Shown here one piece after another: positions 16,158-58,352 of a DNA stretch of 64,000 nucleotides (position 1 is the stretch's first letter; each line of letters starts with the position of its first letter). The stretch is from IMG/VR virus record IMGVR_UViG_3300035698_007508, positions 1-64,000 of that record; one strand, 5' to 3'. The translations under genes were made by a program, and so were the position numbers. Origin of the DNA: a virus. A model generated the notes under the pieces. The model made no database searches and had not been told where the DNA came from. It was given only the letters and a program-made list of their open reading frames with translations.

Positions 16158-16880
16158 ATGCATCAAGTACCGAATTGGAATCAGTGGTTCGCCACCATGG
16201 CGGACCATGTCAAGACCAAGTCCAAGGACCGCTCTACCCAGGTAGGCGCTGTCATCGTGGGCGAAGGGCATCACGTGTTGAGCGTGGGCTACAACGGATT
16301 CCCCCGTGGGATCGATGACGACATAGAGGAACGCCACGAACGTCCGCTCAAGTACTACCTGGTCAGTCACGCGGAGGAGAACGCTATCCTCCACGCTGCG
16401 CGACACGGTATCAAGGTGCTGGGTGCGGACCTGTACTGCACGACGCCGTTCATCTGCGCCGAGTGTGTCAAGGCTATCATTCAGGCTGGGATCGTGCGTA
16501 CGTTCGCGCCGGACCGGGAGATGCAAGCCTGTGGTGACGATTGGTACCGCTCGTGCGCCATCGGTCGTAACATGCTGCTCGAAGCAGGTGTTGAGGTCTG
16601 GCTCATGGACGACGCGGGCAGACAGGAACGCGTGACTGAACCGGCACGTGTACCGGATGCACCTGTGCCAAGCTTGGAACCGCGTACGGATCAGGACGCT
16701 ACCCAGTGGGATGCACTGGTCGACGCGCTGGAGGTGTACGGCAACAAGGAGGGCACCGAGGGTGAAGCTCAAGCAGTGGTACCGCGATACCATCACAGAT
16801 ATCTCCGGTGTCTGCAGCTCGATCTCCGAAGGCCTGGGGCGTACGACGCTCATGGTCGGCCTGGAGTACCAGGACGCTGA
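16158..16880 (+). CDS. dCMP deaminase family protein, 240 aa
   Basis: Zinc-dependent deaminase that would convert dCMP to dUMP for dTMP synthesis, complementing the reductase. Motifs: GYNGFPRG (44-51) typical of dCMP deaminases, HAEE (H71 zinc ligand, E73 proton shuttle) and CAEC (C100, C103 zinc ligands) followed by VKAIIQAGI. The catalytic domain ends near residue 150-170; the last ~40 residues (from nt ~16762) overlap the next gene in another frame and look noncoding (RYHHRYLRCLQLDLRRPG), so the true end may have been closer to 16765 (see findings). SD caggagtgtagt. Confidence 0.88.
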   Translation: MHQVPNWNQWFATMADHVKTKSKDRSTQVGAVIVGEGHHVLSVGYNGFPRGIDDDIEERHERPLKYYLVSHAEENAILHAARHGIKVLGADLYCTTPFICAECVKAIIQAGIVRTFAPDREMQACGDDWYRSCAIGRNMLLEAGVEVWLMDDAGRQERVTEPARVPDAPVPSLEPRTDQDATQWDALVDALEVYGNKEGTEGEAQAVVPRYHHRYLRCLQLDLRRPGAYDAHGRPGVPGR

Positions 16881-21122: not shown

Positions 21123-23096
21123 ATGCTCGGCAACCCAAGTCAGAATCTACCGTTGCCTTACGGCAACACTGGTGAGTGGTCCGGTATCACGCAAGCGGGG
21201 TCCGGGAAGTTTCCCAACCCCTTCTTTGATATCGCCAGTGAGTACGTCCCCCGTAACCTGCACCAGATCTTCGAATGGGCAGAGTACATCTACCTCACCT
21301 ACGGTACATACCGATCTGCAGCCCGCAAGGTCGTACGCTACTTCCTGACCGAGCTCGTGCTTGATGGCGAGTCCGAGGAGGAACGTGATCAGTACCAGGA
21401 CTTCCTGGACAATAAGATGCACATGCTCACCCAGCTGGCATCTATCGGCGATGATTACATGGTGTATGGCAACGTGTTCGTATCCATCTACTTCCCGTTC
21501 GACCGGTTCCTGATCTGCCCTAATTGCCACACGCATTACCACATCGATACCGTACCCTATAAGTGGAACTTCAAACGATTGGAGTTTCACGGACAGTGCC
21601 AGAAGTGCGGTTGGGAAGGCGCGTACGCGCATGAGGACATCCGGTCCATGGATCATGATCGTGTCCGCATCATCCGCTGGAACCCCAAGCGCATTCGTCT
21701 GCGTGTCCACGATATCTCGGGCGAGATAGAGTACTACTACGAGCCTGATCCCAAGTTCGTACGTAAACTGCGTGAGGGCAACCGCTTCTACCTAAATGAC
21801 ACACCGTGGTCCATCGTCGAGTGCTGTGCCAAGTGCCGCGACAGCGATCAACCGTTGTTCCAGTTCACGGCCGACCAGATCTACCACATGAAGGAAGCGA
21901 CGCTGGCCGGCCTGCCTATCAAGGGCTGGGCTATACCTCCGATTCTGCCTAACTTCAAGCTGGCCTACTACATCCAGGTCCTGCGCCGTTACGACGAGGC
22001 TATTGCCTTGGACTACATCGTGCCGTTCCGTATCCTGTACCCCGAGCAAGGGGCCCCAGGCGGGATGAATACCGATCCCCTGATGTCTCTGTCCATGGAC
22101 GTATTCGTCGCCCACATGAAGGGTATGGTTGCGGCCAAGCGCGCCAACGCCACAGATGTACAGATTGCCCCGTTCAAGATCGGGTACGAAATGCTAGGCG
22201 GCGAGGCCGCGACTCTGGCACCAAAGGACAATATTGCACAGGCGCTGGACGAACTGCTGAACGCCGTTGGTTTCCCGGCCGAGCTCTACAAGGGCAGCCT
22301 GTCAATCCAGGCCTTCCCCGTAGCCTTGCGATTGTTTGAGAAGACGTGGGGATCACTGGTCGAGGGCTACAACGATCTGATTGACTGGGTATTGACCAAG
22401 GTTAGCCGTTACTTCGGTTGGGGCCAGATCAGCGGTGCGCTGCGTAGCGTGACGCTGGCTGACGACATCGAGCGTAAGGCACTGGCACTACAGGCCGCAG
22501 CAGGCATGGATATCTCCAAGGGCACGGCGTACAAGCCGCTCGGCATCGACTACCTGGAAGAACAGGAGAAGGTCGTCGAGGAGCAGAAAGAGATCCAGGT
22601 GTTGCAGCAGGAAGCCATGGAAGAGCAGGAAGCTGCGCAGTTCGGCGGCCAAGGTGGCGGCCAAGGTGGTGGACAGGTAGGTACCGGCGGACAGCCAGGC
22701 GCGACGCCGGGTGACGTACATGCCCAGGCTAAGGAGCTGGCGTACACGATGGTCACACAGACGCCTGAGACCCAGCGTCGCTCCGAGCTGATCAAGATCA
22801 AGCACAGCAACCCAACGCTGCACGCGCTGGTCATCCAGGAGATGGACGCGCTGCGTCAGGAACTGTCACGACAGGGTCAGCAGATGATGCTCAGTCAGAT
22901 GAAGCAGGCCGATGATCGCGGTGTACACGTGGCCGGGGCCGGGCTGTTGCCCAGCCCGCTGGCACTTGGACTCTTGATCTCGGGCCAGGTCATGGACTAT
23001 ACTCGGGCTGATATGCGGAAATTGGCCATGGACATCAAGATACCCGGCGTGCGAGGTGCATTCCGGTTTGTGCGTGATAAATTACGAGGACTGTGA
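21123..23096 (+). CDS. Portal protein with embedded zinc ribbon, 657 aa
   Basis: Forms the dodecameric ring at one capsid vertex through which DNA enters and leaves. Evidence: length, position at the head of the virion cassette, an N-terminal region with NPFFDIASEYVPRNLHQIFE-type helices, a crown-like C-terminal part rich in Gln (EEQEAAQFGGQGGG) and a helical wing region (SKGTAYKPLGIDYLEEQ). An unusual insertion at residues ~132-162 has CPNC and CQKC (C132/C135, C159/C162), a Cys4 zinc ribbon. SD taggaggccgct. The large terminase is not in this window. Confidence 0.75.
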   Translation: MLGNPSQNLPLPYGNTGEWSGITQAGSGKFPNPFFDIASEYVPRNLHQIFEWAEYIYLTYGTYRSAARKVVRYFLTELVLDGESEEERDQYQDFLDNKMHMLTQLASIGDDYMVYGNVFVSIYFPFDRFLICPNCHTHYHIDTVPYKWNFKRLEFHGQCQKCGWEGAYAHEDIRSMDHDRVRIIRWNPKRIRLRVHDISGEIEYYYEPDPKFVRKLREGNRFYLNDTPWSIVECCAKCRDSDQPLFQFTADQIYHMKEATLAGLPIKGWAIPPILPNFKLAYYIQVLRRYDEAIALDYIVPFRILYPEQGAPGGMNTDPLMSLSMDVFVAHMKGMVAAKRANATDVQIAPFKIGYEMLGGEAATLAPKDNIAQALDELLNAVGFPAELYKGSLSIQAFPVALRLFEKTWGSLVEGYNDLIDWVLTKVSRYFGWGQISGALRSVTLADDIERKALALQAAAGMDISKGTAYKPLGIDYLEEQEKVVEEQKEIQVLQQEAMEEQEAAQFGGQGGGQGGGQVGTGGQPGATPGDVHAQAKELAYTMVTQTPETQRRSELIKIKHSNPTLHALVIQEMDALRQELSRQGQQMMLSQMKQADDRGVHVAGAGLLPSPLALGLLISGQVMDYTRADMRKLAMDIKIPGVRGAFRFVRDKLRGL

Positions 23097-29714: not shown

Positions 29715-32700
29715 ATGGCATTACCAGACCACCTGAGGGCGTTTGACGATACTCAGACCGCCCGGGATTGGTTACATACGGGTGCCGTCGAAGCGCTTCA
29801 GAACAGATTCCCGATCGAGGATCAGGATTACAAGCTGGAGCTCGACGACGTACGCATCCAGGGTCCAACCCATTTCGGATTAGAACGTCAGAAGCAAGCA
29901 TTGATGAAGGACGAGCAACTGCGCGTCCCCATCAAGGGTCGCTGGCGTTTGACACACAAGCAGTCCGGAGAAGTATTGGACGAGCGTGAAGATACGGTGA
30001 TGCACTTGCCGTATCTGACTGATCGCGGTACTATGATCTACCGTGGTAATGAGTACAGTACGGTCAGTCAGTCCCGCCTCAAGGCCGGCGTTTATGCACG
30101 TCGCAAAAAGAGTGGTGAAATTGAGTCATTCTTCAATGTCAAGCCTGGCACTGGCCGGTCTTTCCGTGTCTGGCTTGAACCACAGACTGGTGTGTTTAAG
30201 GTCAATGTCGGCCAGTCGAACATTCCGCTATACCCGATGCTTTCTGCCCTGGGCGTGAAAGATGCCGATCTGATGAAATCGTGGGGTCCGGATATCTTGG
30301 ACGCTAACCGCAAGGCCCGCGCCGCCCAAGCCATCGACAAGTTGTATCAACGCTTTACTGGTAAGGCCCCGAGTACCGAGATCAGTGAGCAGGCGCGCCG
30401 TGAGGTTCTGGCCGAGGCACTGAACAAGGCAGAAATGGATCCGACCGTTATCGCACGTACGTTGGGCATCCAAGGCGATGGCCGGGTTTCGCCAGCCATA
30501 CTCATGCGCTCGACACAGAAGCTACTGGGCATCAGTCGCGGTGAGGACAAACCGGACGATCGTGACGCGCCTATGTACAGTCGCGTGCTATCGATCGAGG
30601 ACTTCATCAAGGAACGCATCGACAACGACAGCGGCAAGCTGGCGCGATCGCTGCTGTTCAAGGCACGCCGTGATCGTAACCTGCGCCGTGTGCGGGTGGG
30701 TGCGCTTAACGGTTATTCCACCGGCTTTCTACTGGGCAGCCGCCTGACCATGCCGCTGGAAGAGACCAATCCCCTTTCCCTATTGGAGCAGATGAACCGG
30801 GTCACCAAACTGGGTGCCGGTGGTATCTCTGATGCCGACGCGATCACGGACGAAGCCCGTAACGTGAATATCGGGCAATTGGGGTTCATCGATCCCGTGA
30901 CAGGGCCGGAAGATATCAAGATCGGTATCGACACACGCCTGGCATACAGAACTTTCAAGGGCCGCGATCAGCAGATGTATGGTGAGTTTCGGGACGCCCG
31001 GTCCGGAAAGATGGCTTACCTACGTCCGGAAGATCTCGACGGGAAGGTGGTCGCCTTTCCCGGTGAGATGGCTGGCAAAGGGAAGACTGCGACGGCAGCC
31101 GTGGATGGGACGATTCGTGAAGTCCTTAAGAGCAAGGTGGATATCGAAGTACCGTCCATGGCTCACATGCTGTCGTCGCACGTCAACCTCAACCCCATGC
31201 CTACCGCTGTACAGCCCGCTCGGCAGTTCTACGGTGCCAAGTTCTGGTCCCAGTACCTGCCGCAGGTAGAGGGCGAAGCGCCGCTCGTGGATACCGCTAT
31301 GCCTGAGGGTGATCAATCGTTCACCCAGCATTTTGGTAAGCGCGTGGGCACGCTCATGGCGCAGAAGCCTGCCACTGTTACACGTGTCACCGACAGCAAG
31401 GTGTTTCTGCGGGACGTGGACGGTGAGAAGCAGGAGATCGACCTGGTGCAGAACTTCCCGTTCAACCGTATCACCGGCGTCAGTTACCGCCCGGCCGTCA
31501 AGGCCGGTGATGCTGTCGAGGCCGGCGATGTACTGGCGCGCTCCAATTTCGTTGACGATAACAACGCACTGACATTGGGCCGGAATCTCTCCGTAGCTGT
31601 CATCCCCTATCGCGGTAATAGCTACGAAGATGGGATAGTCATTTCGGAGGATGCGGCCAAGAAATTAACAACTAGCCGGCTGTACGGTTTCGATGCCGAG
31701 GTCAAGCACGACGTACAGCTGGGTAAGAATCGGTACGCCAGTCTATTCCCTGCACGATTCTCGAAGAAGCAGCTCGAAGCGCTGGACGACGAGGGTATCG
31801 CCAAGCCGGGCACGGTATTGCAGAAGGGTGATCCGATCATCTTATCTGTTGGTCCGAAGTTGCTCACTGCCGAGGACGTACAGTTAGGGCGCCTGCACAA
31901 GGCGTTACGCCAGGCGCATACGGACAAGGCTGTAGTGTGGGACCACGACTATGAGGGTGTGATCACGGACGCCGTACGCACGCGTAGCGGCGCCAAGGTC
32001 AACGCCAAGGCCAGTGTACCGGTCCAGGTGGGCGACAAGCTGTCACCGCGCTGGGGATTGAAGGGTGTTGTGGCCAAGATCATACCTATGGATCAGATGC
32101 CGCGGCACGCCGGTACCAATGCGCCGTACGATCTGCTACTCAACCCCATGACCATTCTATCACGCGTTGCAGCGGGAGCCCTTGTCGAAATGCAGCTTGG
32201 TAAGCTGGCCAAGCTGCGCGGCAAGGGCTTCAAACTCCCGCAGATGCCGCCGGAAGAGGGCTGGTCCGCCTGGGCGCAACGTCAGCTACTTGAGGCAGGC
32301 GTGGACGAGAAGGATCAGATATTCGATCCCGAGCTGGGTCGAGCACTGAACAAGCCCGTCGCTACCGGCAACATGTACTGGATGGCGTTCCATCACCTTT
32401 CTGAGAAGAAGCTGAGTGAGCGTGGCTCGTCCGGCCTGGGCTACACACAGGATGAACTGCCGGCCCGCGGTGGGTCTGAGACGCAACAGGCCAAGAAGAT
32501 GAGTCAGATGGACATCACGCAGCTTCTGGCGCACGGTGCTACCGACGTGGTCAAGGATGGGCAGATCATCCGCGGCGCCCGGAACGAAGACTACTGGAAG
32601 GCGCTCAAGCTGGGCCGCCCGCTACCGACTCCCGACGTACCGTTTGTGTACAAGAAGTTCCTGAACCTGTTGAACGCCAGCGGCATCAACATCGAGCAGA

Positions 32701-34106
32701 AGGGCGATACGTTGCGGTTGCTGCCTATGCTTGACGAGGACGTTGATCAATTGAGCCACGGTGCAATCACGACCAGCGCGAGGGTGGACGACAAGATGGA
32801 GCCCATCAAGGGTGGGCTGTTTGATCCCGGGCGTACGGGCGGTGCAATGGGTAAGTTCTGGTCGCACATTGACCTGGTCGAGCCAATGCCCAACCCTGTC
32901 TTCGAAGAGCCGATCCGGCGCCTGTTAGGCCTGCGCAAGCAGGACTTCACCGATATCCTGGCCGGGCGTCAGGAACTCAACGGCCAATCAGGCGGCAAGG
33001 CTATACGTGATGCACTAGCCGGTATCGATATCGACGCGCAGATCAAGGAGCACCGGGGTAACATCCGTAAGTACCGCGGCGCCAACCGGGACAACTCGAT
33101 CAAGATCCTGGGATACCTGGACGCCGCCAAGAAGCAGGCCATCCACCCATCCAAGTGGATGTTGACCAAGCTTCCGGTACTGCCGCCCGTGTTCCGCCCT
33201 GTATCCCGTCTGGGCGATATCACGATCGAAGCTGACCTGAACGAGCTGTATCGCGATGCGATCGAGGTCAACAACGCTATCGGCACATTGCGTAAGGATC
33301 TACCCGAGTCGGAACTACAGGACGAGAAGGAAGCGCTGTACCGTGCAGTGAAGGCCGTGACAGGGCTTGGCGATCCAATCACACCCGAGGGACGGTCCCG
33401 CCGCCTTAAGGGCGCGCTCAAGAACGTCATCGGTGATTCACCAAAAAGCGGATTTTTTCAAAGTAGAGTTATCTCCAAGCCTGTTGACCTGGTTGGGCGT
33501 GCAGTCGTAACGCCGGATCCGACGTTGGACATGGATAGTGTAGGATTGCCCGAAGACTCTGCCTGGGACCTGTATCACGACTTTGTCGTCCGGCGGCTGG
33601 TGCGCCAGAACGTACCGTCGCACCGCGCACTCAAGATGATTGAGGATCGTGAGGCCCCAGCCAAGGATGCATTGAACCTGGAAATGCAGTCACGGCCTAT
33701 CATCATGGACCGTGCGCCGACCTGGCATCGATTCAATCTACTGGCGTTCCGGCCACATCTGGTCGAGGGTAAGACCATGCACGTGAGCCCGTTGATCACC
33801 AAGGGCTTCAACATGGATTTTGACGGTGACGCCGTGAACTTCCATGTACCGGTGTCAGACAAGGCTGTGGAGCAGACATACAGCAAAATGCTACCGAGCA
33901 AGAACCTGTTCAGTCTGACCGACTTGAAGTCGCCCCGCCACACCCCGCAGCAGGAAATGGCGCTTGGCCTGTACCTGCTGACCCGTGCCAAGACCGCTCG
34001 GGAGTCCAAGACTTTCGCTACGGTAGCCCAGGCGCGCCGGGCGTATAGGGCCGGAGAGATTGGCGCCAACGATCCGATCAACATATTGGAGTTGAAAGAT
34101 GCCTAA
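29715..34106 (+). CDS. RNA polymerase beta / N-terminal beta-prime fusion, 1463 aa
   Basis: DNA-directed RNA synthesis. Beta part (1 to ~1015): GTMIYRGNEYSTVSQSR (~100-118, the GxFIxNGxExVxxxQ motif), NSYEDGIVIS (~635), KGVVAKIIPMDQMPR (~783) followed by YDLLLNPMTILSR and GALVEMQLGKLA. Beta-prime part: GGLFDPGRTGG (~1034), LPVLPPVFRPVSRLG (~1156), DLNELYRDAIEVNN, SRVISKPVDLVGRAVV (~1251, lid/rudder region) and the catalytic NMDFDGDAVNFHVP with D1368, D1370, D1372 holding Mg. The beta-prime N-terminal zinc site is missing its Cys residues. It stops ~95 residues after the catalytic triad; the remainder is the gene at 36283. SD aaggataactc. Lies amid virion genes. Confidence 0.93.
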   Translation: MALPDHLRAFDDTQTARDWLHTGAVEALQNRFPIEDQDYKLELDDVRIQGPTHFGLERQKQALMKDEQLRVPIKGRWRLTHKQSGEVLDEREDTVMHLPYLTDRGTMIYRGNEYSTVSQSRLKAGVYARRKKSGEIESFFNVKPGTGRSFRVWLEPQTGVFKVNVGQSNIPLYPMLSALGVKDADLMKSWGPDILDANRKARAAQAIDKLYQRFTGKAPSTEISEQARREVLAEALNKAEMDPTVIARTLGIQGDGRVSPAILMRSTQKLLGISRGEDKPDDRDAPMYSRVLSIEDFIKERIDNDSGKLARSLLFKARRDRNLRRVRVGALNGYSTGFLLGSRLTMPLEETNPLSLLEQMNRVTKLGAGGISDADAITDEARNVNIGQLGFIDPVTGPEDIKIGIDTRLAYRTFKGRDQQMYGEFRDARSGKMAYLRPEDLDGKVVAFPGEMAGKGKTATAAVDGTIREVLKSKVDIEVPSMAHMLSSHVNLNPMPTAVQPARQFYGAKFWSQYLPQVEGEAPLVDTAMPEGDQSFTQHFGKRVGTLMAQKPATVTRVTDSKVFLRDVDGEKQEIDLVQNFPFNRITGVSYRPAVKAGDAVEAGDVLARSNFVDDNNALTLGRNLSVAVIPYRGNSYEDGIVISEDAAKKLTTSRLYGFDAEVKHDVQLGKNRYASLFPARFSKKQLEALDDEGIAKPGTVLQKGDPIILSVGPKLLTAEDVQLGRLHKALRQAHTDKAVVWDHDYEGVITDAVRTRSGAKVNAKASVPVQVGDKLSPRWGLKGVVAKIIPMDQMPRHAGTNAPYDLLLNPMTILSRVAAGALVEMQLGKLAKLRGKGFKLPQMPPEEGWSAWAQRQLLEAGVDEKDQIFDPELGRALNKPVATGNMYWMAFHHLSEKKLSERGSSGLGYTQDELPARGGSETQQAKKMSQMDITQLLAHGATDVVKDGQIIRGARNEDYWKALKLGRPLPTPDVPFVYKKFLNLLNASGINIEQKGDTLRLLPMLDEDVDQLSHGAITTSARVDDKMEPIKGGLFDPGRTGGAMGKFWSHIDLVEPMPNPVFEEPIRRLLGLRKQDFTDILAGRQELNGQSGGKAIRDALAGIDIDAQIKEHRGNIRKYRGANRDNSIKILGYLDAAKKQAIHPSKWMLTKLPVLPPVFRPVSRLGDITIEADLNELYRDAIEVNNAIGTLRKDLPESELQDEKEALYRAVKAVTGLGDPITPEGRSRRLKGALKNVIGDSPKSGFFQSRVISKPVDLVGRAVVTPDPTLDMDSVGLPEDSAWDLYHDFVVRRLVRQNVPSHRALKMIEDREAPAKDALNLEMQSRPIIMDRAPTWHRFNLLAFRPHLVEGKTMHVSPLITKGFNMDFDGDAVNFHVPVSDKAVEQTYSKMLPSKNLFSLTDLKSPRHTPQQEMALGLYLLTRAKTARESKTFATVAQARRAYRAGEIGANDPINILELKDA

Positions 34107-34923
34107 GCTGTGGGCGTGCAAAGATGGGTCCGTACTGATTGGTAGTGTCGAGGCGCAGGCCGCCGGCGGGCTCAGCTATGTACCGGATAGTTGCGCCACA
34201 GTTAACGTGTACGTACAGGCGTTTTACGACGACTACAGACACACGCATAGGTGTGACGATGCTTGCTTCGGCATTTATCTGCACACAGATAGGACAGTGC
34301 GGTTCCTAGGCTACGCGCAGTTGGATAACTGGATCGATGGCGGCTCCCGCTATAGTCCGTGGTGGTACATCGACTGGTCTACGGTTGACTACAACTGTCC
34401 GTGTGTCCAGTTCGAGGCACGCTGTGCAGAGAATGATCCTATAGACGATTGCGGCGGTGTACACGGTACCGGCAGTATTAGACCCGCAACGGAGTGTCAT
34501 GACGGTGTTGTCACCCTGTGCGTACGTAGCACAGCGGGCCCTAACTGTACCGCTTTGGGGTGCAATGTGATCATAGCCAATACGTGGTATCACATATGGG
34601 ACATCGCGGCCTTGACGCCGTGTGTTGGCGGCGCGTCGGTGGCCGCAATCGGACCTGCACGCGTGGAGCCTGCTGATCTACTGTGGGATGCTGCTCATCT
34701 GGCGCACGGGTTCGAATTGCGCGGTACAGATGGCGAAGCGTGGCTGCTGGCGGCCACCGACACTGACATAGAACGTGAAGCGCGCAGGGCGCACGCGGAT
34801 GAACGCGTGGCAATCTGTAAAGAGTGTCCACATTTCACGTCGGATTCCTGCGGTATCTGGAATGCGGACATGGCCGCGATACGCTATGGGCTAGATATAT
34901 GTCCGTTACGTAAATGGTGGTAA
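34099..34923 (+). CDS. Cys-rich protein between polymerase halves, 274 aa
   Basis: Starts 8 nt before the polymerase gene's end. Unusually rich in Cys (about twenty) and Asp/Tyr (HRCDDACFGIYL, DYNCPCVQFEARC, NCTALGCNV). The C-terminal 35 residues have CKECPHF, CGIW and CPLRKWW, a zinc-ribbon-like end. Residues ~60-165 appear beta-rich. No signal peptide. Either a zinc-dependent partner of the polymerase or an unrelated virion/host-interaction protein; position between the two polymerase genes is suggestive only. Confidence 0.62.
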   Translation: MPKLWACKDGSVLIGSVEAQAAGGLSYVPDSCATVNVYVQAFYDDYRHTHRCDDACFGIYLHTDRTVRFLGYAQLDNWIDGGSRYSPWWYIDWSTVDYNCPCVQFEARCAENDPIDDCGGVHGTGSIRPATECHDGVVTLCVRSTAGPNCTALGCNVIIANTWYHIWDIAALTPCVGGASVAAIGPARVEPADLLWDAAHLAHGFELRGTDGEAWLLAATDTDIEREARRAHADERVAICKECPHFTSDSCGIWNADMAAIRYGLDICPLRKWW

Positions 34924-34986
34924 AATGAGTTGCATACATCGTGGCGACTGTAGTACCGTAATATGCACATCTTGGAAGGAGACAAC

Positions 34987-35607
34987 ATGACACAGAGACT
35001 TGACTACGTGAAGTTACAGGCCGTTATGGACGGTTTTCAGAAGAAGGCGTTCGTCGCTATGCCCGGCGGGGCCGATCCAGCCGCAGGCGGGATGCAGTCA
35101 CAAGCACAGGCCGCACCACCCGGTGGCGCACCTATGGACCCGGCCGCGATGGGCGGAATGCCGATGGACCCGATGGCGGGCGGCGGTATGCCGATGGACC
35201 CGGCGGCAATGGGCATGGGCCCAATGCCCGGCTCGGTTACGATGTCCATCCCTGAACTCATTGAGTTCATTGCCGTCGTGAAGGGTGACGGAGCTGCGGC
35301 TGCGGGCGAGAAGCCTAAGAAGAAGGACGACGAAGCAGCACCGGCGGCCGGCGCACCGGCCGAGGCCGATCCGATGGCGTCGCTGAACCAGAAACTTGAC
35401 CAGCTCTTGGCGGCCGCCGGCGGCGGTATGCCGATGGACCCGATGGCAGGCGGTGGCGGTATGCCACCAATGGCCGACGGCGGTGGTATGCCGATGGACC
35501 CGATGGCGGGCGGCGGTATGCCAGCTGATCCGATGGCGGGCGGCGGTATGCCAGCTGATCCGATGGCTGGCGGAGCGCCGATGGGCGGAGCGCCGCCACC
35601 TATGTAA
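34987..35607 (+). CDS. GGGMPMDP-repeat protein, 206 aa
   Basis: SD ttggaaggagacaac sets the start at 34987. After a short helical N-terminus (RLDYVKLQAVMDGFQKKAFV) come repeats of GGGMPMDPMAGG and relatives; a folded middle part (SIPELIEFIAVVKG, KPKKKDDEAAPAAG, LNQKLDQLLAA) separates two repeat blocks. Low-complexity Met/Pro/Gly repeats suggest a flexible, perhaps phase-separating or spacer protein. Similar Gly/Met/Glu stretches are in the scaffold candidate at 47723. Role unknown. Confidence 0.62.
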   Translation: MTQRLDYVKLQAVMDGFQKKAFVAMPGGADPAAGGMQSQAQAAPPGGAPMDPAAMGGMPMDPMAGGGMPMDPAAMGMGPMPGSVTMSIPELIEFIAVVKGDGAAAAGEKPKKKDDEAAPAAGAPAEADPMASLNQKLDQLLAAAGGGMPMDPMAGGGGMPPMADGGGMPMDPMAGGGMPADPMAGGGMPADPMAGGAPMGGAPPPM

Positions 35608-35615
35608 GGACTAAC

Positions 35616-35873
35616 ATGGCAAATGGACGACCTGGACGGGTACGCGTGTTGCAGGGGGTCAAGCAGGTTCTGCTGGACACGCACGAAGCTACCGTCATCG
35701 AATTCCGGGACCAGTTTGGGGATCTGAACGCGTTGATCTCACGTCATTTCAACGATGACATGTGGATCTTCACGACCAAGGCCGATCCGGACTGGCACAC
35801 GCACTTGGTGCGGTTGGGCTATGCGCCAGCTGATATGAACGTACATCAACTCGTACAGAACTTGAAAGGCTGA
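35616..35873 (+). CDS. Hypothetical protein, 85 aa
   Basis: SD taaggactaac. Compact alpha/beta protein (KQVLLDTHEATVIEFRDQFG, MWIFTTKADPDWHTHLVRLG) with no Cys. Second of the small genes between the two polymerase halves. Not recognised. Confidence 0.6.
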   Translation: MANGRPGRVRVLQGVKQVLLDTHEATVIEFRDQFGDLNALISRHFNDDMWIFTTKADPDWHTHLVRLGYAPADMNVHQLVQNLKG

Positions 35874-35874
35874 C

Positions 35875-36279
35875 ATGAATGATACACCCGCATTGAGCTA
35901 CGTTCCGCCTTGGGTCCGCGACCTAATGGTAGGCCTTTGTACCGCCGCCGTACTCGCATCCGTAACCCTAGTCTTACGCCTGGACAAGACCGTCGCTACG
36001 TTTGTCGAGTCGCACGTGGAGACGCATAGGCAGCTGGACAGGATGATTACGGAGTTGAAGAACAATACCGTTCAGACCGCCCGCGAAGTCAACCTACTGC
36101 ACGACGATTTCCTTGAGTTCTCGGCCGGCACTACTGCTAACCGTTACACCATCTACAACGCGTTTACGGATCAGAAGAAGAGTGCCGAGGAGCTCAGGGA
36201 AGTATGGAACGCTATTCACGAGATCAAGTTGGACGTGGTCAAAATACAGAGCGATAGCGAGCGCATTACGCACGAGTGA
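35875..36279 (+). CDS. Membrane-anchored coiled-coil protein, 134 aa
   Basis: ATG one base after the previous stop. Residues ~18-36 (LMVGLCTAAVLASVTLVLRL) form a transmembrane helix; the rest is a long amphipathic helix/coiled coil (HRQLDRMITELKNNTVQTAR). Could be holin-like, or an anchor holding a virion component at the membrane. Immediately upstream of the beta-prime C-terminal gene. Confidence 0.6.
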   Translation: MNDTPALSYVPPWVRDLMVGLCTAAVLASVTLVLRLDKTVATFVESHVETHRQLDRMITELKNNTVQTAREVNLLHDDFLEFSAGTTANRYTIYNAFTDQKKSAEELREVWNAIHEIKLDVVKIQSDSERITHE

Positions 36280-36282
36280 CGT

Positions 36283-39243
36283 ATGCAGACAACCATCGGA
36301 CAGGTACTTGTAAACGACGCGCTTCCCGAGGAAATGCGGAATTACGGTCGGATATTGACCAGCAACGAAGCTGATGACTTGTTGGGCGCGGTTGCGCGTG
36401 ACCACCCCGAGGACTACCGTGATATCTCCCATGCACTGGTACAATTGGGCCGCAACGCCGCGTTCGAAGAGTCAGCAACGCTGTCCCTGTCTGACATGCA
36501 GGTCCCGTTTGACCGTAAAGAGCTGTTCGATCATGTACGCACTCAGACCCGTAAGATCATGGCGTCCAAGGATATGACTGACGATCAGAAACAGCAAGCG
36601 CTGGTTAGCGTATACGGGCAAGTCCAGAAATTCTTCGTCGATAACACGTACAAGGATATGGCGGCCAAGGACAACCCATTCGCGCTACAGGTACTGTCTA
36701 AGGCCCGCGGTAACCCGTCCCAGCTTGCAGCACTCATGACTACGCCTGGTACGTATACCGATGCATATGGCAACGTGATTCCCGTTTTCGTCCGCCATTC
36801 CTACGCCGAGGGCCTGAGCCCTCACGAGTACTGGGCGGGTACGTACGGCGCTAGGCAGGGTGTGATATGTTTGCATCCCGATACGGAGGTATTATTAGCC
36901 GATTTTACGGTCAGGAGGTTATCCGAGATCCGCGTTGGCGACACAGTATTAACAGATACTAATGAAGGCTTGGTACCTACTGCAGTACGTGCTGTGCACA
37001 ATAACGGGCTACAGCCTATGTATGAATTTACGTTCCGTAAGAATGCGAGCCAGTCTTACGTGCATGTCACGTGTACTGACCAACACAAATTCAAGGCGCG
37101 TTTGTGGAAGTCGGGCGCACGAGGCACGCCGCGAAAACTGCTTGAACCGCAGCTACGTCCTTTGTCAGACGCACGGTACCAGCGCAGGAAATGGAATAAT
37201 AATTACGTGGCAGTGCCAGCTGGAGGCGCGTGCGTTGGAGGTAAGCACGAACCGTTGGCATTACTATTGGGTTTGATGCTGGGTGACGGGTGTACAACCA
37301 AGTCTACACGTGGGCGATATAGTATCAGCTGCGCTGATCAGATTCTGATACGCGATGTACACGATTATATGGCAGAGCACGGTGTAGAACTGGTTAAAGT
37401 CGGTGGTGACAATTATAACTGGGTATTGAAACAGGCTTCAGCTGTATTCAATACCACACATACCAGCTTGACGAGCTATATGGGCGGAAAGTATGCACAC
37501 CAGAAAACATTACCGGTAGATATATATACGTGGGATACACACAGTATAGGCGCATTGGTAGGCGGATTGATAAGCGCTGACGGTAGCTTTACGCGCAGCG
37601 AAACAAGTAAGTGGATGTGTATACAGTGCACATCCAGAGATATGATCGCAGAACTGCATCGCGTACTGGAACTCAGACTAGGCGTATGGTGTAACCCTAT
37701 TTACCGTGTGGATAAAGCTGACAAACAGCACGCAGTACACGATCAATACGGTTTCACGATCACGCACCCCGATTCACTATGCAAACTTAGAGCGTGTATC
37801 ACGCTTGTAGGTATAAAGCGTGAACAGTTTGCAGCGTGGGATCTCAAGCCAGGTACGCGCTATAGTCCGCACGGTTTTCGTATACAGGGGCGTAGACTTG
37901 TCGGTATGCAGCCTGCACTAGATCTAGAAGTTGAGCACGTTTCTCATACATTTGTACTGGCGAACGGACTTATATCGTCTAATAGTACGAAATTTGCCAC
38001 CCGTGACGCTGGCGATCTAGGTAAGCAGTTCAACCAGGCGGCCATGCGTATGGTCGTGACCGCGAATGACTGCGACACGGCGAGCGGTATACCGGTCTCC
38101 ACCGACGACAAGGATACGATTGGTGGGGTACTGGCGCGTAAGGCCGGCAAGTACCCACCCGGCACCGTAGTTTCCAAAGAGGTACTTGAGGATCTGCAGG
38201 ACCTGGACAGTATCGTGGTGCGGTCTCCGCTCACCTGCGGCTTGTCCCAGGGCGTGTGCAAGCAGTGCGTCGGGCTCCGTGAGAATGGGGCCTTCCCGAA
38301 CACGGGCGATCATGTAGGTATCAACGCGGCCAGTGCGCTGGCCGAACGTATCGCCCAAGGAAGCTTAAATGTGAAACATTCTGGCGGCATGTCCAAGGGC
38401 GATACGGGCGAGAAAGTTTACGCTGGCTTCGATGTGATCAATCAGCTGTTCCAGGCACCCAAGACGTTTCCGAACCGCGCCGCCATCGCCACGATGGACG
38501 GCCGTGTTGATCGTATCGAGCCCGCCGCACAGGGCGGTCAGAACATCTATATCGACGACGAGCTCCATTACGCGTTGCCTGACGCCAAGGTAACCGTGCA
38601 GGTAGGGGACCGGGTCGAGGCTGGTGACCAGCTGTCCAGCGGTATTCTTAATCCCCGAGAGGTCGTGCAGTATAAAGGTATCGGCGAGGGCCGGCGTTAC
38701 TTCACGGAACGGGCGGCCCAGGCATTCCGTGAGAGCGGGTACAGCATCAATCGCCGCAATCTCGAAATCCTGGTTCGCGGTATGATGGATCACGCGGTGG
38801 TAGATGATCCCGACGGTTCTGGCGATTACCTACCAGGCGACATCGTGTCCTACAACGCTCTGGCCCGCGGGTACCGGCCACGCAAGGACGCGCAGCAGTT
38901 GGACACGGACAAGGCTATCGGACAGTACCTGGAACAGCCGATCCTGCACCACACGATCGGGACGCGCATCACCCGCGCTATGGCCAAGCAGTTACGTGAC
39001 TTCGGACACACACGTGTACTGGCGCACCCGTCGGTACCATCGTTTTCCCCGACGATGGTAGGCCTGCGTGCCGTACCGCAGCAGGAGTCAGACTGGATGG
39101 CACAGATGGGCTCCAGCCATTTGCAGAAGAATTTGCTCAAGAACGTACAGCGTAATGCTGAGTCTCAGACGCACGGCCTACACCCGGTACCGGCGTTGGC
39201 TAAAGGTGTGGACTTCGGAGATACAGAGGAGGTCGGGTACTGA
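36283..39243 (+). CDS. RNA polymerase beta-prime C-terminal part, intein-containing, 986 aa
   Basis: Completes the beta-prime subunit. Residues 1-195: TTIGQVLVNDALPEEMRNYG, a SLSDMQVP segment, bridge helix (131-152, NPFALQVLSKARGNPSQLAA) and trigger-loop start (SPHEYWAGTYGARQGVI). An intein occupies residues 196-567. From 568: STKFATRDAGDLGKQF (trigger helix), the second beta-prime zinc site (C597, C652, C659, C662; last two spacings match C888/C895/C898 of E. coli) and GDHVGINAASALAERIAQGS (degenerate GExVGxIAAQSIGEPG), then HSGG. Spliced length is about 614 residues. Without excision the active centre could not close. Confidence 0.92.
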   Translation: MQTTIGQVLVNDALPEEMRNYGRILTSNEADDLLGAVARDHPEDYRDISHALVQLGRNAAFEESATLSLSDMQVPFDRKELFDHVRTQTRKIMASKDMTDDQKQQALVSVYGQVQKFFVDNTYKDMAAKDNPFALQVLSKARGNPSQLAALMTTPGTYTDAYGNVIPVFVRHSYAEGLSPHEYWAGTYGARQGVICLHPDTEVLLADFTVRRLSEIRVGDTVLTDTNEGLVPTAVRAVHNNGLQPMYEFTFRKNASQSYVHVTCTDQHKFKARLWKSGARGTPRKLLEPQLRPLSDARYQRRKWNNNYVAVPAGGACVGGKHEPLALLLGLMLGDGCTTKSTRGRYSISCADQILIRDVHDYMAEHGVELVKVGGDNYNWVLKQASAVFNTTHTSLTSYMGGKYAHQKTLPVDIYTWDTHSIGALVGGLISADGSFTRSETSKWMCIQCTSRDMIAELHRVLELRLGVWCNPIYRVDKADKQHAVHDQYGFTITHPDSLCKLRACITLVGIKREQFAAWDLKPGTRYSPHGFRIQGRRLVGMQPALDLEVEHVSHTFVLANGLISSNSTKFATRDAGDLGKQFNQAAMRMVVTANDCDTASGIPVSTDDKDTIGGVLARKAGKYPPGTVVSKEVLEDLQDLDSIVVRSPLTCGLSQGVCKQCVGLRENGAFPNTGDHVGINAASALAERIAQGSLNVKHSGGMSKGDTGEKVYAGFDVINQLFQAPKTFPNRAAIATMDGRVDRIEPAAQGGQNIYIDDELHYALPDAKVTVQVGDRVEAGDQLSSGILNPREVVQYKGIGEGRRYFTERAAQAFRESGYSINRRNLEILVRGMMDHAVVDDPDGSGDYLPGDIVSYNALARGYRPRKDAQQLDTDKAIGQYLEQPILHHTIGTRITRAMAKQLRDFGHTRVLAHPSVPSFSPTMVGLRAVPQQESDWMAQMGSSHLQKNLLKNVQRNAESQTHGLHPVPALAKGVDFGDTEEVGY
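36868..37983 (+). mobile_element. Intein with LAGLIDADG homing endonuclease, 372 aa
   Basis: Self-splicing protein element in the beta-prime trigger loop. N-terminus C196 begins block A (CLHPDTEVLLADFTVRRLSE); block B is HVTCTDQHKF; LAGLIDADG-type motifs are LLLGLMLGDG (~325) and ALVGGLISADGSF (~423); C-terminal blocks F/G are ALDLEVEHVSHTFVLANGL then ISSN with N567, followed by Ser568 as the +1 nucleophile. The penultimate residue is Ser instead of the usual His. The segment is visibly more AT-rich (TTA, ATA codons) than its host gene, a sign of separate acquisition. Confidence 0.93.
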
Positions 39244-53738: not shown

Positions 53739-56700
53739 ATGGCCTACATTCAACCACAAGTACAGGTGTTTCAAGAGTTTCAGCAGCTTCCACAGAGCGT
53801 GGTAGCCAACCTGAACGCCTTCGTTCACGGCCCGAACTACCGGCTACTGCGCTACGCAGAGGCTAGTGAGAAGGCGCTGATTGGTCTGGGAAGTTATGAT
53901 CCCGACGCCAATGCGACGTTTGCCTTCCCTAACCAGCCCGCTGGTTCGACTGTCGATCTTGATTACGTCAAGCTATACATGGAAGATGTGTGGGCCCGCT
54001 ATGCCACGATCTCCGGTGCTTCGACGACCCGGCTGGCAGCGGTCAGTTCCGCCGCACTGAACAAGTTGCGTGCTATTCCCCGCGTCGAGGACGCTGAGGA
54101 ACCGACCACGACCGACGGTGTGACAATGCAAGCGTCCGGGTATGTTTATGACAGCCCCGCACTCCCCGAAACCTTCTACCTGACCCCATCTGGCGGCGCG
54201 GTAGGTGGTGCCTGGACTCGGCTCAATGCCAGTCCTGTGGCGGTCGCCGTAGCCGACGCGTGGGACGGTGATGACGCTGTATTCGGGTACCGCAGCGAGT
54301 CCGAAGGCCAGGCCGGCACGATTAGTGTACCGACGGCCGATACTCCGCTGGTGAGCGGTGTTAAGGTCCAAGGCCCGTACGGCGTTGTACTGGATATGAA
54401 TCTCGGTGGCCGTCTGGCCGGTCTGATCGCATACACCGGACAGCCCACGAACGCGCAGACCGTTTCGATCGGTGGCGAGACCCTTACCTTTAAGACAGTG
54501 CCTGTGAGCCTGACCAACGACGTCCTGATCGGCGCCGATGCCCAGGCGACATACGACAACCTTAAGACCAAGGTTGAAACACTGGAGCCCACGGGCGTGT
54601 ACGAAGTGGTACATGCATCCGTGGATAGCGACAACGGTAACCTGTGGGTGATTGGCGGCGCTATGCTCGTCATGCCTACGGCTACGGTTGCAAATGCAAC
54701 GGTATACGCCGCATTCGCATTTGCCGGCGTGCGCCAGCCTACAGTACTGACGTTCCGTAATACGCTGGGTACCGCAAGCTTCACCATGACTGTCGATCCG
54801 GACACGCTGGGTGACTCGATTGACCGTGCCATTGATGATGCTACGCCTTTGCGTGTTAACTACACGCTTGGGTCCGACATGGTCGCAGGCCTGAATACGA
54901 CGTCCCGTGTTTGTTCTATCGAGTTCGAGGCCGGCGTGACCACGCTTGGTGAACTTCGCGCAGAGTTGGTCGGCGATTCCGATATCGCCGCTGCTTTTGA
55001 CATCGGTGAACTGGATGCCAACGACACAGACGAAGTCGTGGATCTCGTTATTGACGAGACTGAGGCACCCGTGACCGCCGACATTGACGTAATGATGGTG
55101 CGCGATGCGTACCGTATCAAGGTCTTCCCGAACGAGGTGACGTGGGCTACCGGTAACGGTTACGCACACTCTAATCACTTCAAGAGTCGTGGCGTGCAGG
55201 TCGGTGACCGTCTACGTTACAGTGTGGTTGGTGCAGACAGCGTGACCTATGAAGGCTCAACACAGGTAGCAGCGCTCGAAGCTGATACACTGGCGGCTAA
55301 GATCAACGCACCTACGTTCGACGTGAATAACGGCGCCACGCAGACCGGTACGCAACTGGTTCCGCACACCGGTGCCAACATCATCGTCAAGGGTGCCGAC
55401 AATCAGATCGCCTGCGAAGGTTCCGAGACGCGGGTTTACGCCCTGTCTGACACGAACCTGTATTTTGGCGGTGACTACTCCGGCGGTGTACTGAGTGATA
55501 TCTTCACGATCACGATCACCGCAGCCGGGGCCCCTGGTACCGCACGTTGCACTGTTACGAACCAGAGCGGTACGTACACGCGTACGCTGGTTCCGATCAG
55601 CACGATCAATTGGGATCACGCGGATTCCGCCGCTATGGGTATGGTCGACCTCGGTAATAACCTGTGGGCAGTATTGCATGAGGACGCAGCTTCAGTCGAG
55701 TTCCAGACGGGTGATACCTACACGTTTGACACCGCACTGGCTTCACCCTGGGCAGCAATTTCGTCAGCACGTATCGCGGCCTCCGGCGCCTACACAGGCC
55801 CGGTTGACACGACGTACCTGGTGAAGGTTGTACGCGGTGGTGTATTCGACCGTACTCACAACGTGATCGACGGACTCCACAATCCTAACGCATTGGTCAT
55901 CGATTACGGCGGACACCTACTGTCACGCGCCCAGGACGGCGATACAGTGACGGCCGGTGGGGTTGTTTTCGAGTTTGATGACGACGCTTCCGTGACCGGT
56001 AGTAATACGCGGGTTGATATCAGCGGTTCAAGCGCGATCGACACCGACTGGGCACTCCTGGTCGCGGCCGTGAACGCCAGCGCCGGTGCTGTATACGCCA
56101 GCCAAGACACTACCGCCGACACAGTAACCATCCGCGGTTCCTACAACGCCGTCGATGGTAGCTCTATGAGCGCGCCGGGTGACGCTGGTGTTGAGTATCG
56201 CGTGTACGGACTGCAGCTGGTTTCACAGCTGGACTACGACGCGGGCGAATGGGCACTGGGCGATATCGACGACGAGTACATCCTGCGCTGCACGGCGGCT
56301 GGCACGGTGTTGAACGCGCAGTTCACGCTGGAGTCACTCCAGGGTGACGCGCAGACACTGGTCGAGTTCGCTGGTACTGGTTCGAGCCACGCAGTGACGG
56401 CCGGCACCGCTGGCCTGTCCTTGTATTTCGACAACGAGAGCGAGACCCCGACTGTGAACGTCGGCGATTACTGGGTTGTGCGTGTGAACGCTACCCGCCC
56501 CCGCGTACAGATCACGGATACGGCCGGCGTTGACCAAGGCACCTACAAAGTCGTGGACAACGGTGTTGACTTCGACGTGGGTCTGTGGGGCGTACAGGCG
56601 AGCTTCGCCAGCAATCCGAACACTGAGGGTGGCTTCGCTACCAACGGCGGGCTGGTGACTGGTGACATCTTCTATATCGATGCTGACGCTGCGAGCGACG

Positions 56701-58352
56701 GCCCGATCAAGACTCTGGTACTTGCGGACGATCTGCCTGCGGCAGTGACCACAGGTCTAGCAATTGACGACAGCGGTGCAGTGGCCACGTACTCGGCCAA
56801 TTACTCACCAAGTCTGTTCACGGCTAACCTGTACTTAGTACAGAGTGCCGCCGAGGTCAGCTCTAAGAAGCTGCAGTCGCCACCTAACTACAACTGGGAA
56901 GCAGCACTGACCGGTGTATCCGTCAATCAGGATATCGCCGTGCAGGACGCATCCTGGACGGAACTGGATGGCTCGATGCCTTACCTGCCGGTCTATGCTG
57001 GTAGCATGTACGTGGAATACCGTGCACTGCTGGCCGACTACGCAGACGGCATCTACTCACTCAGCGACATCGGTGACGTTGTTACCGAGCTGGGCGTGGT
57101 CCACCCTGACAACCCGCTGGCACAGGGCGTGTATAATGCGCTGCTGAACTCGGGTGATCAGTCGGTCTACTTCATGGCTACCCCGTCAGACGATCTGGCT
57201 GGTTACAGCGCAGTGCTGGACCAGGCATCCAAGACGGACGTGGTTTACGGTTTCGCGCCGCTGACGCAGGATATGAACATCCTGGCAGCAGTGGAGGCAC
57301 ACATCAACGACCTGTCGGGCGCCGAGAACAAGCGCTGGCGTATCGGCTTTGTCGGTACCGCGCTGCCGGCCGACACCGTGGTCTACGATGCATCGACCTT
57401 CACACCGGCGGGCACCGCATGGCTCGCAACCGTAACGGATAACCCGGCTGTCGCCGGCACGCAGAACACCGTGGTCCAACTGACCAACGGTTCGCCGAAT
57501 TGCGTAGCCGATGTCAAGGCAGGGGACGAGATCCGTGTAAACTTCGCGACCGACGCATGGGGTGACGAGACCTACGAGAGCTACACTGTGGCAAGCGTTG
57601 TCTCCAACACCAAGGTGATCCTGACCTCCGGGCCGGCGGCACCTATCACGATTGCCGCCAAGGTGGAAGTGGTACATCCGAACAGCACAGCGCAGATCGC
57701 TACAGCCGTAGCGGCACGCTCCAGCTACTTCGGTAATCGCCGCATCTACCACGTGTTCCCGAGCGTCGGGTACATGGACGGTGTTATGCAGACTTCCGAA
57801 TTCATGGCCGCAGCGATGGCCGGACTGGTAAGTTCAGTACCGCCGCAGCAGGGCCTGACCAACATCTCGGTCAACGGATTCACCGATCTGCCGTCCGTAT
57901 ACGGTACGTACACTCGTGCACAGCTGAACGAGATGGCTGCTGGTGGTACGTTCATACTGATGCAGGATATGGCCGGTGGTGAAGTCTATGTACGTCACCA
58001 GATCTCTTCCGCTACCACGGACGGGAACCTGTTGACGACTGAGCTCAATGTAACCAAGAATCTCGACTCAATCAGTTACTACTTCGCTGGCGTGCTGCAG
58101 CCGTTTATCGGCCGTTACAACATCACGCCGGAGTTGCTGGTCGTGCTGAGAACGCAGGTGAAAAACGGCTTGAACTACATGGCAAGCGACCAGACAGGCG
58201 CAGGATTGCTCGGCCCGATGATCATCGGTGGCGAGAATACTGCAATCCGCAGTCTCGAACAGCATCCTACGCTGCAAGATCACGTCGTTATCGTCGTCGA
58301 TATACAGCTACCGCTGCCGATGAATGTGATTCAGCTACGCCTGGTTGTGTAA
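53739..58352 (+). CDS. Tail sheath protein, 1537 aa
   Basis: Contracts around the tube to drive it into the host envelope. N-terminus (PQVQVFQEFQQLPQSVVANL, NAFVHGPNYRLLRYAEA) has the sheath family start; the last ~170 residues (MDGVMQTSEFMAAAMAGLVS, VYVRHQISSATTDGN, LDSISYYFAGVLQPFIGRYN, LQDHVVIVVDIQLPLPMNVI) are the conserved sheath core that carries the C-terminal linking arm. Between them ~1000 residues of Asp/Thr/Gly-rich beta-domain-like sequence (many Ig-like candidates) make this sheath two to three times the usual length. SD aaaggagtctggta style before ATG. Confidence 0.85.
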   Translation: MAYIQPQVQVFQEFQQLPQSVVANLNAFVHGPNYRLLRYAEASEKALIGLGSYDPDANATFAFPNQPAGSTVDLDYVKLYMEDVWARYATISGASTTRLAAVSSAALNKLRAIPRVEDAEEPTTTDGVTMQASGYVYDSPALPETFYLTPSGGAVGGAWTRLNASPVAVAVADAWDGDDAVFGYRSESEGQAGTISVPTADTPLVSGVKVQGPYGVVLDMNLGGRLAGLIAYTGQPTNAQTVSIGGETLTFKTVPVSLTNDVLIGADAQATYDNLKTKVETLEPTGVYEVVHASVDSDNGNLWVIGGAMLVMPTATVANATVYAAFAFAGVRQPTVLTFRNTLGTASFTMTVDPDTLGDSIDRAIDDATPLRVNYTLGSDMVAGLNTTSRVCSIEFEAGVTTLGELRAELVGDSDIAAAFDIGELDANDTDEVVDLVIDETEAPVTADIDVMMVRDAYRIKVFPNEVTWATGNGYAHSNHFKSRGVQVGDRLRYSVVGADSVTYEGSTQVAALEADTLAAKINAPTFDVNNGATQTGTQLVPHTGANIIVKGADNQIACEGSETRVYALSDTNLYFGGDYSGGVLSDIFTITITAAGAPGTARCTVTNQSGTYTRTLVPISTINWDHADSAAMGMVDLGNNLWAVLHEDAASVEFQTGDTYTFDTALASPWAAISSARIAASGAYTGPVDTTYLVKVVRGGVFDRTHNVIDGLHNPNALVIDYGGHLLSRAQDGDTVTAGGVVFEFDDDASVTGSNTRVDISGSSAIDTDWALLVAAVNASAGAVYASQDTTADTVTIRGSYNAVDGSSMSAPGDAGVEYRVYGLQLVSQLDYDAGEWALGDIDDEYILRCTAAGTVLNAQFTLESLQGDAQTLVEFAGTGSSHAVTAGTAGLSLYFDNESETPTVNVGDYWVVRVNATRPRVQITDTAGVDQGTYKVVDNGVDFDVGLWGVQASFASNPNTEGGFATNGGLVTGDIFYIDADAASDGPIKTLVLADDLPAAVTTGLAIDDSGAVATYSANYSPSLFTANLYLVQSAAEVSSKKLQSPPNYNWEAALTGVSVNQDIAVQDASWTELDGSMPYLPVYAGSMYVEYRALLADYADGIYSLSDIGDVVTELGVVHPDNPLAQGVYNALLNSGDQSVYFMATPSDDLAGYSAVLDQASKTDVVYGFAPLTQDMNILAAVEAHINDLSGAENKRWRIGFVGTALPADTVVYDASTFTPAGTAWLATVTDNPAVAGTQNTVVQLTNGSPNCVADVKAGDEIRVNFATDAWGDETYESYTVASVVSNTKVILTSGPAAPITIAAKVEVVHPNSTAQIATAVAARSSYFGNRRIYHVFPSVGYMDGVMQTSEFMAAAMAGLVSSVPPQQGLTNISVNGFTDLPSVYGTYTRAQLNEMAAGGTFILMQDMAGGEVYVRHQISSATTDGNLLTTELNVTKNLDSISYYFAGVLQPFIGRYNITPELLVVLRTQVKNGLNYMASDQTGAGLLGPMIIGGENTAIRSLEQHPTLQDHVVIVVDIQLPLPMNVIQLRLVV

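What the first reader, a model, noticed from the sequence alone, without database searches (positions are those of the whole stretch)
29715..39243. Phage multi-subunit RNA polymerase with a beta/beta-prime fusion and a split beta-prime
Seen: beta motifs and the beta-prime catalytic motif NMDFDGDAVNFHVP share one 1463-residue frame (29715-34106); the rest of beta-prime, with bridge helix, trigger loop and second zinc site, is a separate gene (36283-39243). Known: bacterial beta and beta-prime are separate genes; phiKZ-like phages split both but do not join beta to beta-prime in this way; some lineages carry natural rpoB-rpoC fusions. Inferred: a distinct polymerase architecture, cut just after the catalytic triad.
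Basis: partly seen in the sequence, partly recalled or inferred. Interest (0 to 1): 0.88.

Follow-up and report, generated by a model that had tools for sequence, protein, structure and literature searches.

The report
Fused, re-split, intein-carrying phage RNA polymerase
This uncultured tailed phage carries its own bacterial-type RNA polymerase whose two big subunits were first fused into one protein and later cut again at a new place, and one piece carries a self-removing insert in the middle of the active-site helix; the same layout is found in dozens of other phages, so it is real and apparently undescribed rather than an assembly error.

Summary
Observation confirmed. Window 29715-34106 is one open frame (1463 aa) with bacterial-type beta followed by the first part of beta-prime, including NMDFDGD; 36283-39243 (986 aa) is the rest of beta-prime. 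It is not an assembly error: 33 phage loci, including isolated Salmonella phage Arash and Vibrio phage D69, have the same two-gene layout, and another 33 have all of beta and beta-prime in one ~2000-2100-aa frame. A 64-row tree puts the fused phage polymerases in one clade apart from bacteria, with the two-gene forms one clade (97/94) nested among full fusions. So rpoB and rpoC fused once, and the fusion was later cut once, without loss, in a linker after the catalytic barrel, near the cut of cyanobacteria and phiKZ-type phages. No alpha subunit in 10 records; one polymerase per record; often near the portal gene. Most likely an alpha-less core enzyme that needs protein splicing; virion packaging is possible but untested. 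Nearest published group: 'mReC' phages (2020), whose text does not mention fusion, split or inteins. New variant of a known kind.

The parts
29715..34106 (+). Gene 1: beta fused to beta-prime N-terminal part (1463 aa)
   Evidence: Pfam and NCBIfam matches in order beta, beta-prime; conserved as one frame in relatives
32031..32066 (+). beta barrel motif GDKLSPRWGLKG with the two invariant active-site lysines K775 and K783
   Evidence: invariant in alignments A1 and A4
32745..32865 (+). beta/beta-prime junction; the beta-prime start runs into KGGLFD..TGG..G..WSHI with no cysteines, i.e. no N-terminal zinc ribbon
   Evidence: conserved across family; read directly from sequence
33222..33374 (+). 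clamp helices (N1176, Y1179 invariant), the sigma-region-2 docking site in bacteria
   Evidence: alignment A1; helices 613-632 and 637-655 of the model
33816..33830 (+). catalytic triad DFDGD (D1368, D1370, D1372)
34099..34923 (+). 274-aa ORF between the two polymerase genes, overlaps gene 1 end by 8 bases; no family match
34963..35607 (+). 214-aa Gly/Met/Pro-rich ORF between the two genes
   Evidence: no family match
35875..36279 (+). 134-aa ORF with a membrane-like stretch between the two genes
   Evidence: no family match
36283..39243 (+). Gene 2: beta-prime C-terminal part (986 aa as encoded, 614 aa after splicing)
   Evidence: Pfam Rpb1_5, rpoC_TIGR 207.6 bits
36868..37983 (+). LAGLIDADG intein, residues 196-567 (starts CLHPDTEV, ends NGLISSN, +1 residue S568)
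   Evidence: Pfam LAGLIDADG_3 34.8 bits over cut-off 22.5; Hint match 19.6 bits, below its cut-off; absent with clean junction in 24 relatives
36820..36867 (+). bridge helix, first half (residues 180-195)
   Evidence: aligned to T. thermophilus beta-prime up to ~1081; helix 180-193 in model
37984..38043 (+). bridge helix, second half (STKFATRDAG..., residues 568-587)
38071..38268 (+). second zinc site, C597 ... C652, C659, C662
   Evidence: alignment A3
38332..38412 (+). trigger loop (AERIAQGSLNVKHSGG)
   Evidence: alignment to bacterial EPGTQLTMRTFHTGG
21123..23096 (+). portal protein homologue, upstream of the polymerase on the same strand in 46 of 73 loci
   Evidence: 30% identical to Arash gp204 'portal protein' over 567 aa
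46243..47703 (+). head maturation protease-like gene downstream
   Evidence: PHROG 18299, E 2e-5
53739..58352 (+). tail sheath-like gene (contractile tail)
   Evidence: PHROG 279, E 2.3e-12

Best explanation
The two genes encode the complete catalytic core of a bacterial-type, alpha-less, phage-encoded RNA polymerase. Gene 1 supplies beta plus the clamp and the Mg-binding barrel of beta-prime in one chain, so the two-barrel active site is made within one polypeptide; gene 2 supplies the bridge helix, trigger loop, second zinc site and the rest of beta-prime and joins as a second subunit. The layout arose in two steps: an ancestral phage polymerase in which rpoB and rpoC were fused end to end (with loss of the beta-prime N-terminal zinc ribbon), then a single later cut in the linker just after the catalytic barrel, with no residues lost and no split intein. 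In this phage an intein entered the bridge helix, so gene 2's product must splice itself before the enzyme can add nucleotides. Shown by sequence: homology, motifs, fusion, cut site, insert, phylogeny. Inferred: that the two chains assemble, that splicing occurs, that the enzyme is active without alpha. More weakly inferred (about 0.4): because its genes lie in the head-gene module near the portal and there is one copy per record, it is made late and may be packaged in the virion to start transcription of the next infection; promoter choice would come from a phage factor, a sigma-like protein in some members.
For: Domain matches and order; invariant triad and lysines, conserved trigger loop. 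Same layout in Arash gp206+gp216 and D69 and in 33 loci in all; undivided frame in 33 loci. Careful tree, 64 rows: phage clade 100/100; split forms one clade 97/94, one origin in 98% of bootstraps; nested in full fusions by 100/98 and 97/96. Scarless cut: full fusion L059 reads AEQALEEYKNGKIKPSDLVTIRGLKTTVGKLVVNAVIP, the window ends gene 1 with RAYRAGEIGANDPINILELKDA and starts gene 2 with MQTTIGQVLVNDALP. Intein: clean absence in 24 relatives, LAGLIDADG match, terminal motifs. AlphaFold model of residues 562-1463: pLDDT 86, pTM 0.77, PDB matches to beta-prime/gamma and beta. Alpha (PF01193) in 0 of 10 records while 13 of 14 control genomes are positive. Portal upstream in 46 of 73 loci; one polymerase per record in 15 of 15.
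Against: No experiment. The two chains were not modelled together, and the fused part was modelled only from residue 562. The intein's splicing domain is weakly matched (Hom_end_hint 19.6 bits, below cut-off) and its penultimate residue is Ser, not the usual His, so splicing efficiency is unknown. The outgroup branch is long, so the root within the phage clade is not beyond doubt. The contig is 126.8 kb and near relatives reach ~210 kb, so absence of sigma or alpha may reflect missing sequence. Packaging in the virion rests on gene position alone.
Confidence: 0.82

Rival explanations
1. Assembly or frame error: two ordinary separate genes rpoB and rpoC joined or cut by sequencing mistakes.
For: Metagenomic contig.
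Against: The same 1450-1530-aa frame and the same cut occur in dozens of independent contigs and in isolated phages; alignment runs through the junction with conserved residues.
Confidence: 0.01
2. The split is ancestral (inherited from a cyanobacterial-type or phiKZ-type donor with beta-prime cut after the catalytic barrel) and the full fusions arose later by rejoining.
For: The cut lies within about 60 residues of the cyanobacterial gamma/beta-prime cut, also the phiKZ-type cut (PMC7598289); best PDB fold match is a cyanobacterial gamma chain.
Against: Tree: full fusions are paraphyletic and basal, split forms one nested clade. NCBIfam scores: generic rpoC 221 bits, cyanobacterial gamma 188.
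Confidence: 0.1
3. The two halves are rejoined at protein level by a split intein or at RNA level by a trans intron.
For: The family is rich in inteins and has a group I intron.
Against: No intein half at the end of gene 1 or the start of gene 2; both termini are in the linker that full fusions read straight through. In Arash the genes between the halves lie mostly on the other strand; in L010 the second half lies upstream. No Rfam intron in the window.
Confidence: 0.03
4. It is a middle/late, non-virion polymerase that transcribes structural genes, not a virion enzyme.
For: phiKZ-type phages have such an enzyme (PMC7598289); several relatives carry sigma-like genes.
Against: Only one polymerase per record and its genes lie among head genes near the portal, odd for an enzyme needed before late genes.
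Confidence: 0.45
5. The insert in gene 2 is a regulatory domain (like lineage-specific inserts of bacterial RNAP), not an intein.
For: Splicing-domain profile score is below cut-off.
Against: Position inside the bridge helix is hard to reconcile with function; Cys start, TCTDQH block, two LAGLIDADG motifs, C-terminal SN|S, matches to intein-containing proteins, clean absence in relatives.
Confidence: 0.04

Closest known systems
mReC phages (multimeric RNAP-encoding Caudovirales; Weinheimer and Aylward 2020, PMC7481178)
   Same: Phage RNAP recognisably close to bacteria, forming a deep clade apart from them; same kind of source (IMG/VR, including metagenome 3300017989).
   Different: That paper's text treats beta and beta-prime as two subunits and does not mention fusion in these phages, a split or inteins; its filter required NADxDGD, the window has NMDFDGD. 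Overlap by contig name could not be tested.
phiKZ/AR9-type jumbo phage RNAPs (PMC7598289, PMC7824862)
   Same: No alpha or omega; beta-prime cut after the catalytic barrel.
   Different: They also split beta, do not fuse beta to beta-prime, mostly carry two polymerases, and are far more diverged.
Cyanobacterial/plastid gamma (rpoC1) and beta-prime (rpoC2)
   Same: Nearly the same cut site in beta-prime.
   Different: beta is separate there; here beta is fused to the gamma-like part.
Natural rpoB-rpoC fusions (NCBIfam NF007172 and NF011417; Helicobacter and Wolbachia type, from general knowledge)
   Same: Same order beta then beta-prime; best NCBIfam match of gene 1 (312 bits).
   Different: Those keep all of beta-prime and work with alpha and omega; the score is far below the cut-off 5372.
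Single-chain two-barrel phage RNAPs (crAss-like gp66, YonO, P23-45 gp64/gp96; PMC10770324)
   Same: Both barrels in one polypeptide.
   Different: Those are minimal and hardly similar to cellular enzymes in sequence; here nearly the full bacterial beta and beta-prime plan is kept, with a second subunit.

Membership tests
Bacterial-type multisubunit RNAP core | beta and beta-prime homology incl. DFDGD triad and barrel lysines | tested here: met
Bacterial-type multisubunit RNAP core | bridge helix and trigger loop | tested here: met
   (bridge helix interrupted by the intein)
Bacterial-type multisubunit RNAP core | alpha subunit in the same genome | tested here: not met
   PF01193 in 0 of 10 records; contig incomplete, use of host alpha not testable
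Bacterial-type multisubunit RNAP core | sigma factor | tested here: inconclusive
   Sigma70_r2 in 5 of 10 records, none in the window's contig or its nearest relatives G001, G002, G004
phiKZ-type jumbo phage RNAP | beta split in two or more chains | tested here: not met
   beta is whole within the 1463-aa frame
phiKZ-type jumbo phage RNAP | beta-prime cut after the catalytic barrel | tested here: met
   PMC7598289
phiKZ-type jumbo phage RNAP | two polymerases per genome | tested here: not met
   one per record in 15 of 15; records may be incomplete
mReC phage RNAP | NADxDGD motif | tested here: not met
   window NMDFDGD; many clade members do have NADxDGD
mReC phage RNAP | clade apart from cellular RNAP | tested here: met
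   100/100 against 7 bacterial rows; no archaea or eukaryotes included
mReC phage RNAP | same contigs as the published set | not testable with these tools
   supplement not available; three names use other numbering
rpoB-rpoC fusion proteins (NF007172) | single chain holding all of beta-prime | tested here: not met
   window gene 1 lacks the beta-prime C-terminal part; met in 33 relatives
LAGLIDADG intein | in-frame insert in a conserved site, cleanly absent in relatives | tested here: met
LAGLIDADG intein | homing endonuclease domain | tested here: met
   LAGLIDADG_3 34.8 bits vs cut-off 22.5
LAGLIDADG intein | Hint splicing domain | tested here: inconclusive
   Hom_end_hint 19.6 bits vs cut-off 32.1; model of this part is low confidence
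LAGLIDADG intein | splicing activity | not testable with these tools
   needs expression

The most novel reading that the evidence does not exclude
A whole phage lineage uses a single-chain bacterial-type beta-beta-prime polymerase that was secondarily re-cut to make a new two-subunit architecture, works without alpha, is carried in the virion, and in this phage is switched on only after an intein leaves the bridge helix.
Probability: 0.3. Interest if true: 0.82.

Novelty: new variant of a known kind. Interest (0 to 1): 0.64.

Why it matters
It shows an ordered path of fusion then re-splitting of the two largest subunits of the universal transcription enzyme, with both states alive today, and another arrival at nearly the same cut site in beta-prime as in cyanobacteria and phiKZ-type phages. 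It offers alpha-less enzymes close enough to bacterial RNAP to align residue by residue, in which fusion, cutting and assembly can be tested directly; isolates (Arash, D69) exist. Inteins and introns in the catalytic loop, bridge helix and trigger loop make this family a natural set of splicing-gated polymerases.

Tried and rejected
Search of IMG/VR with gene 2 alone found nothing, partly because patterns fell in the intein; gene 2 partners were found through gene 1 instead. I first placed the intein in the trigger loop by eye; the alignment to T. thermophilus puts it in the bridge helix. Intein sequence against PDB: no match. Literature searches for fused or intein-bearing phage beta/beta-prime found no description; Arash has no paper in the library. 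Several 'phage' records with separate rpoB and rpoC look like bacterial DNA and were used only as outgroups. Trans-splicing and frame error were considered and rejected (see rivals).

Full report
Where the window lies. The window is the first 64 kb of a 126,754-base virus record. It encodes a contractile-tailed phage: tail sheath-like gene (53739-58352), head maturation protease-like protein (46243-47703), ribonucleotide reductase (11-1810), a portal homologue (21123-23096) by similarity to Arash gp204 and one tRNA-Gln.

The observation. The frame 29715-34106 (1463 aa) holds, in order, beta domains (Rpb2_2, Rpb2_3, Rpb2_6) and beta-prime domains (Rpb1_1, Rpb1_2) with NMDFDGD. Phmmer against PDB gives bacterial beta over residues 18-1013 and beta-prime over 1073-1457. 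The junction keeps the start of beta-prime (KGGLFD..TGG..G..WSHI), but the N-terminal zinc ribbon of beta-prime is missing: this stretch has no cysteine (sequence). The frame 36283-39243 (986 aa) holds the rest of beta-prime.

The intein. Residues 196-567 of the second protein are not polymerase. They start with Cys, carry two LAGLIDADG motifs (LALLLGLMLGDG, IGALVGGLISADG; Pfam LAGLIDADG_3 34.8 bits) and end NGLISSN before Ser568. In 24 relatives the two flanks join without a gap. By the alignment to T. thermophilus beta-prime the insert lies at about 1082/1083, in the middle of the bridge helix (helix limits from general knowledge); the model shows helices 180-193 and 561-587 on its two sides. 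An unspliced enzyme could hardly work. Relatives carry other inserts in the same polymerase, several with homing-endonuclease or intein matches: beta near window residues 399, 626, 788 and 930, the junction near 1046, the DFDGD loop, and the trigger loop. Vibrio phage D181 has a group I intron in the same gene (100.7 bits); its relative D69 has the gene uninterrupted.

Relatives and architectures. tblastn finds gene 1 end to end in Salmonella phage Arash (30%) and Vibrio phage D69, with gene 2 homologues 4.7 and 0.6 kb downstream. A profile search of IMG/VR finds 218 related contigs. Mapping six domain profiles on all frames shows two states: the whole of beta and beta-prime in one frame of about 2000-2100 aa, or the window's two-gene state. 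In the tree set these are 33 and 33 loci, with 8 more where gene 2 was not found in the stretch held. In L010 gene 2 lies upstream of gene 1; in Arash most genes between the halves lie on the other strand. So the halves are separate gene products.

History. A careful LG+C20 tree of 64 rows and 1092 columns gives phage polymerases 100/100 against bacterial rpoB/rpoC rows; two-gene forms are one clade (97/94; one change in 98% of bootstraps), nested by 100/98 and 97/96 within full fusions. A larger LG+G4 tree agrees. Hence fusion first, one cut later. The cut is scarless: full fusions read from the end of gene 1 to the start of gene 2 across a short linker. It is close to the cyanobacterial cut and to the phiKZ-type cut, which Sokolova et al. 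note coincides with the cyanobacterial one (PMC7598289).

Function. The triad, the two barrel lysines (K775, K783), clamp helices, trigger loop and, in most rows, the second zinc site are conserved. AlphaFold gives the stretch from the beta barrel to the end of gene 1 as one confident chain (pLDDT 86, pTM 0.77), with PDB matches to beta-prime or gamma and to beta. The extein parts of gene 2 are mostly confident, the intein is not, and the model matches beta-prime. No alpha was found in 10 records; sigma region 2 in 5 of 10, not in the window's contig. Each of 15 records has one polymerase. A portal homologue lies upstream on the same strand in 46 of 73 loci. I infer an alpha-less core, assembled from two chains, made with head proteins; packaging in the virion is a guess at about 0.4.

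What is known. The nearest published group is mReC (PMC7481178); its main text mentions fusion only for crAssphage, and no split or inteins, though its members probably include full fusions. Reviews and papers on other phage polymerases describe other layouts (PMC7598289, PMC7824862, PMC10770324). The library holds only open-licence papers, so an earlier description elsewhere cannot be excluded. I rate it a new variant of a known kind.

Noticed in passing
L008, L061, L064, L068, L074, L110 (beta-prime catalytic loop): In-frame inserts directly after DFDGD or DYDGD, ending ..VVYD|T or ..IVWD|T with Asp where inteins usually have Asn; in L008 and L110 the motif before the insert reads DFDGN.
   Followed up: partly
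L008 9953-17350: The window's nearest relative carries three in-frame inserts in one polymerase frame (2466 aa).
   Followed up: partly
L030 7455-7735 (Vibrio phage D181): Group I intron with homing endonuclease gene inside the beta/beta-prime gene; absent in D69. A second group I intron at L030 3658-3865.
   Followed up: partly
L076 frame 8929-16335, aa 1819-2223: Insert in the trigger loop (QLSMNAFHC...SHN|TGGVVG).
   Followed up: no
L099 11185-11187: In-frame TGA splits an otherwise full fusion frame; sequencing error, recoding or reassigned stop.
   Followed up: no
L121-L129 (mostly Synergistota genomes): Compact, strongly diverged beta-beta-prime-like proteins in single frames of about 1437-1679 aa in bacterial genomes; maybe prophage or plasmid polymerases.
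   Followed up: no
L010 6538-8397 and 9275-15592: Gene 2 lies upstream of gene 1, the reverse of the other loci.
   Followed up: no
L020, L023-L025: Records filed as Acinetobacter, Staphylococcus, Enterococcus or unnamed phages hold separate bacterial-type rpoB and rpoC (L020 with rplK, rplA, rplJ, rplL before them), likely bacterial DNA.
   Followed up: partly
window 34963-35607: Low-complexity ORF of GGMPMDPMAGG-type repeats between the two polymerase genes.
   Followed up: no
L014 16905-20630, L038 17504-21694, L043 14898-18521: Gene 2 frames about twice as long as usual (1208-1397 aa), with long extra C-terminal parts.
   Followed up: no
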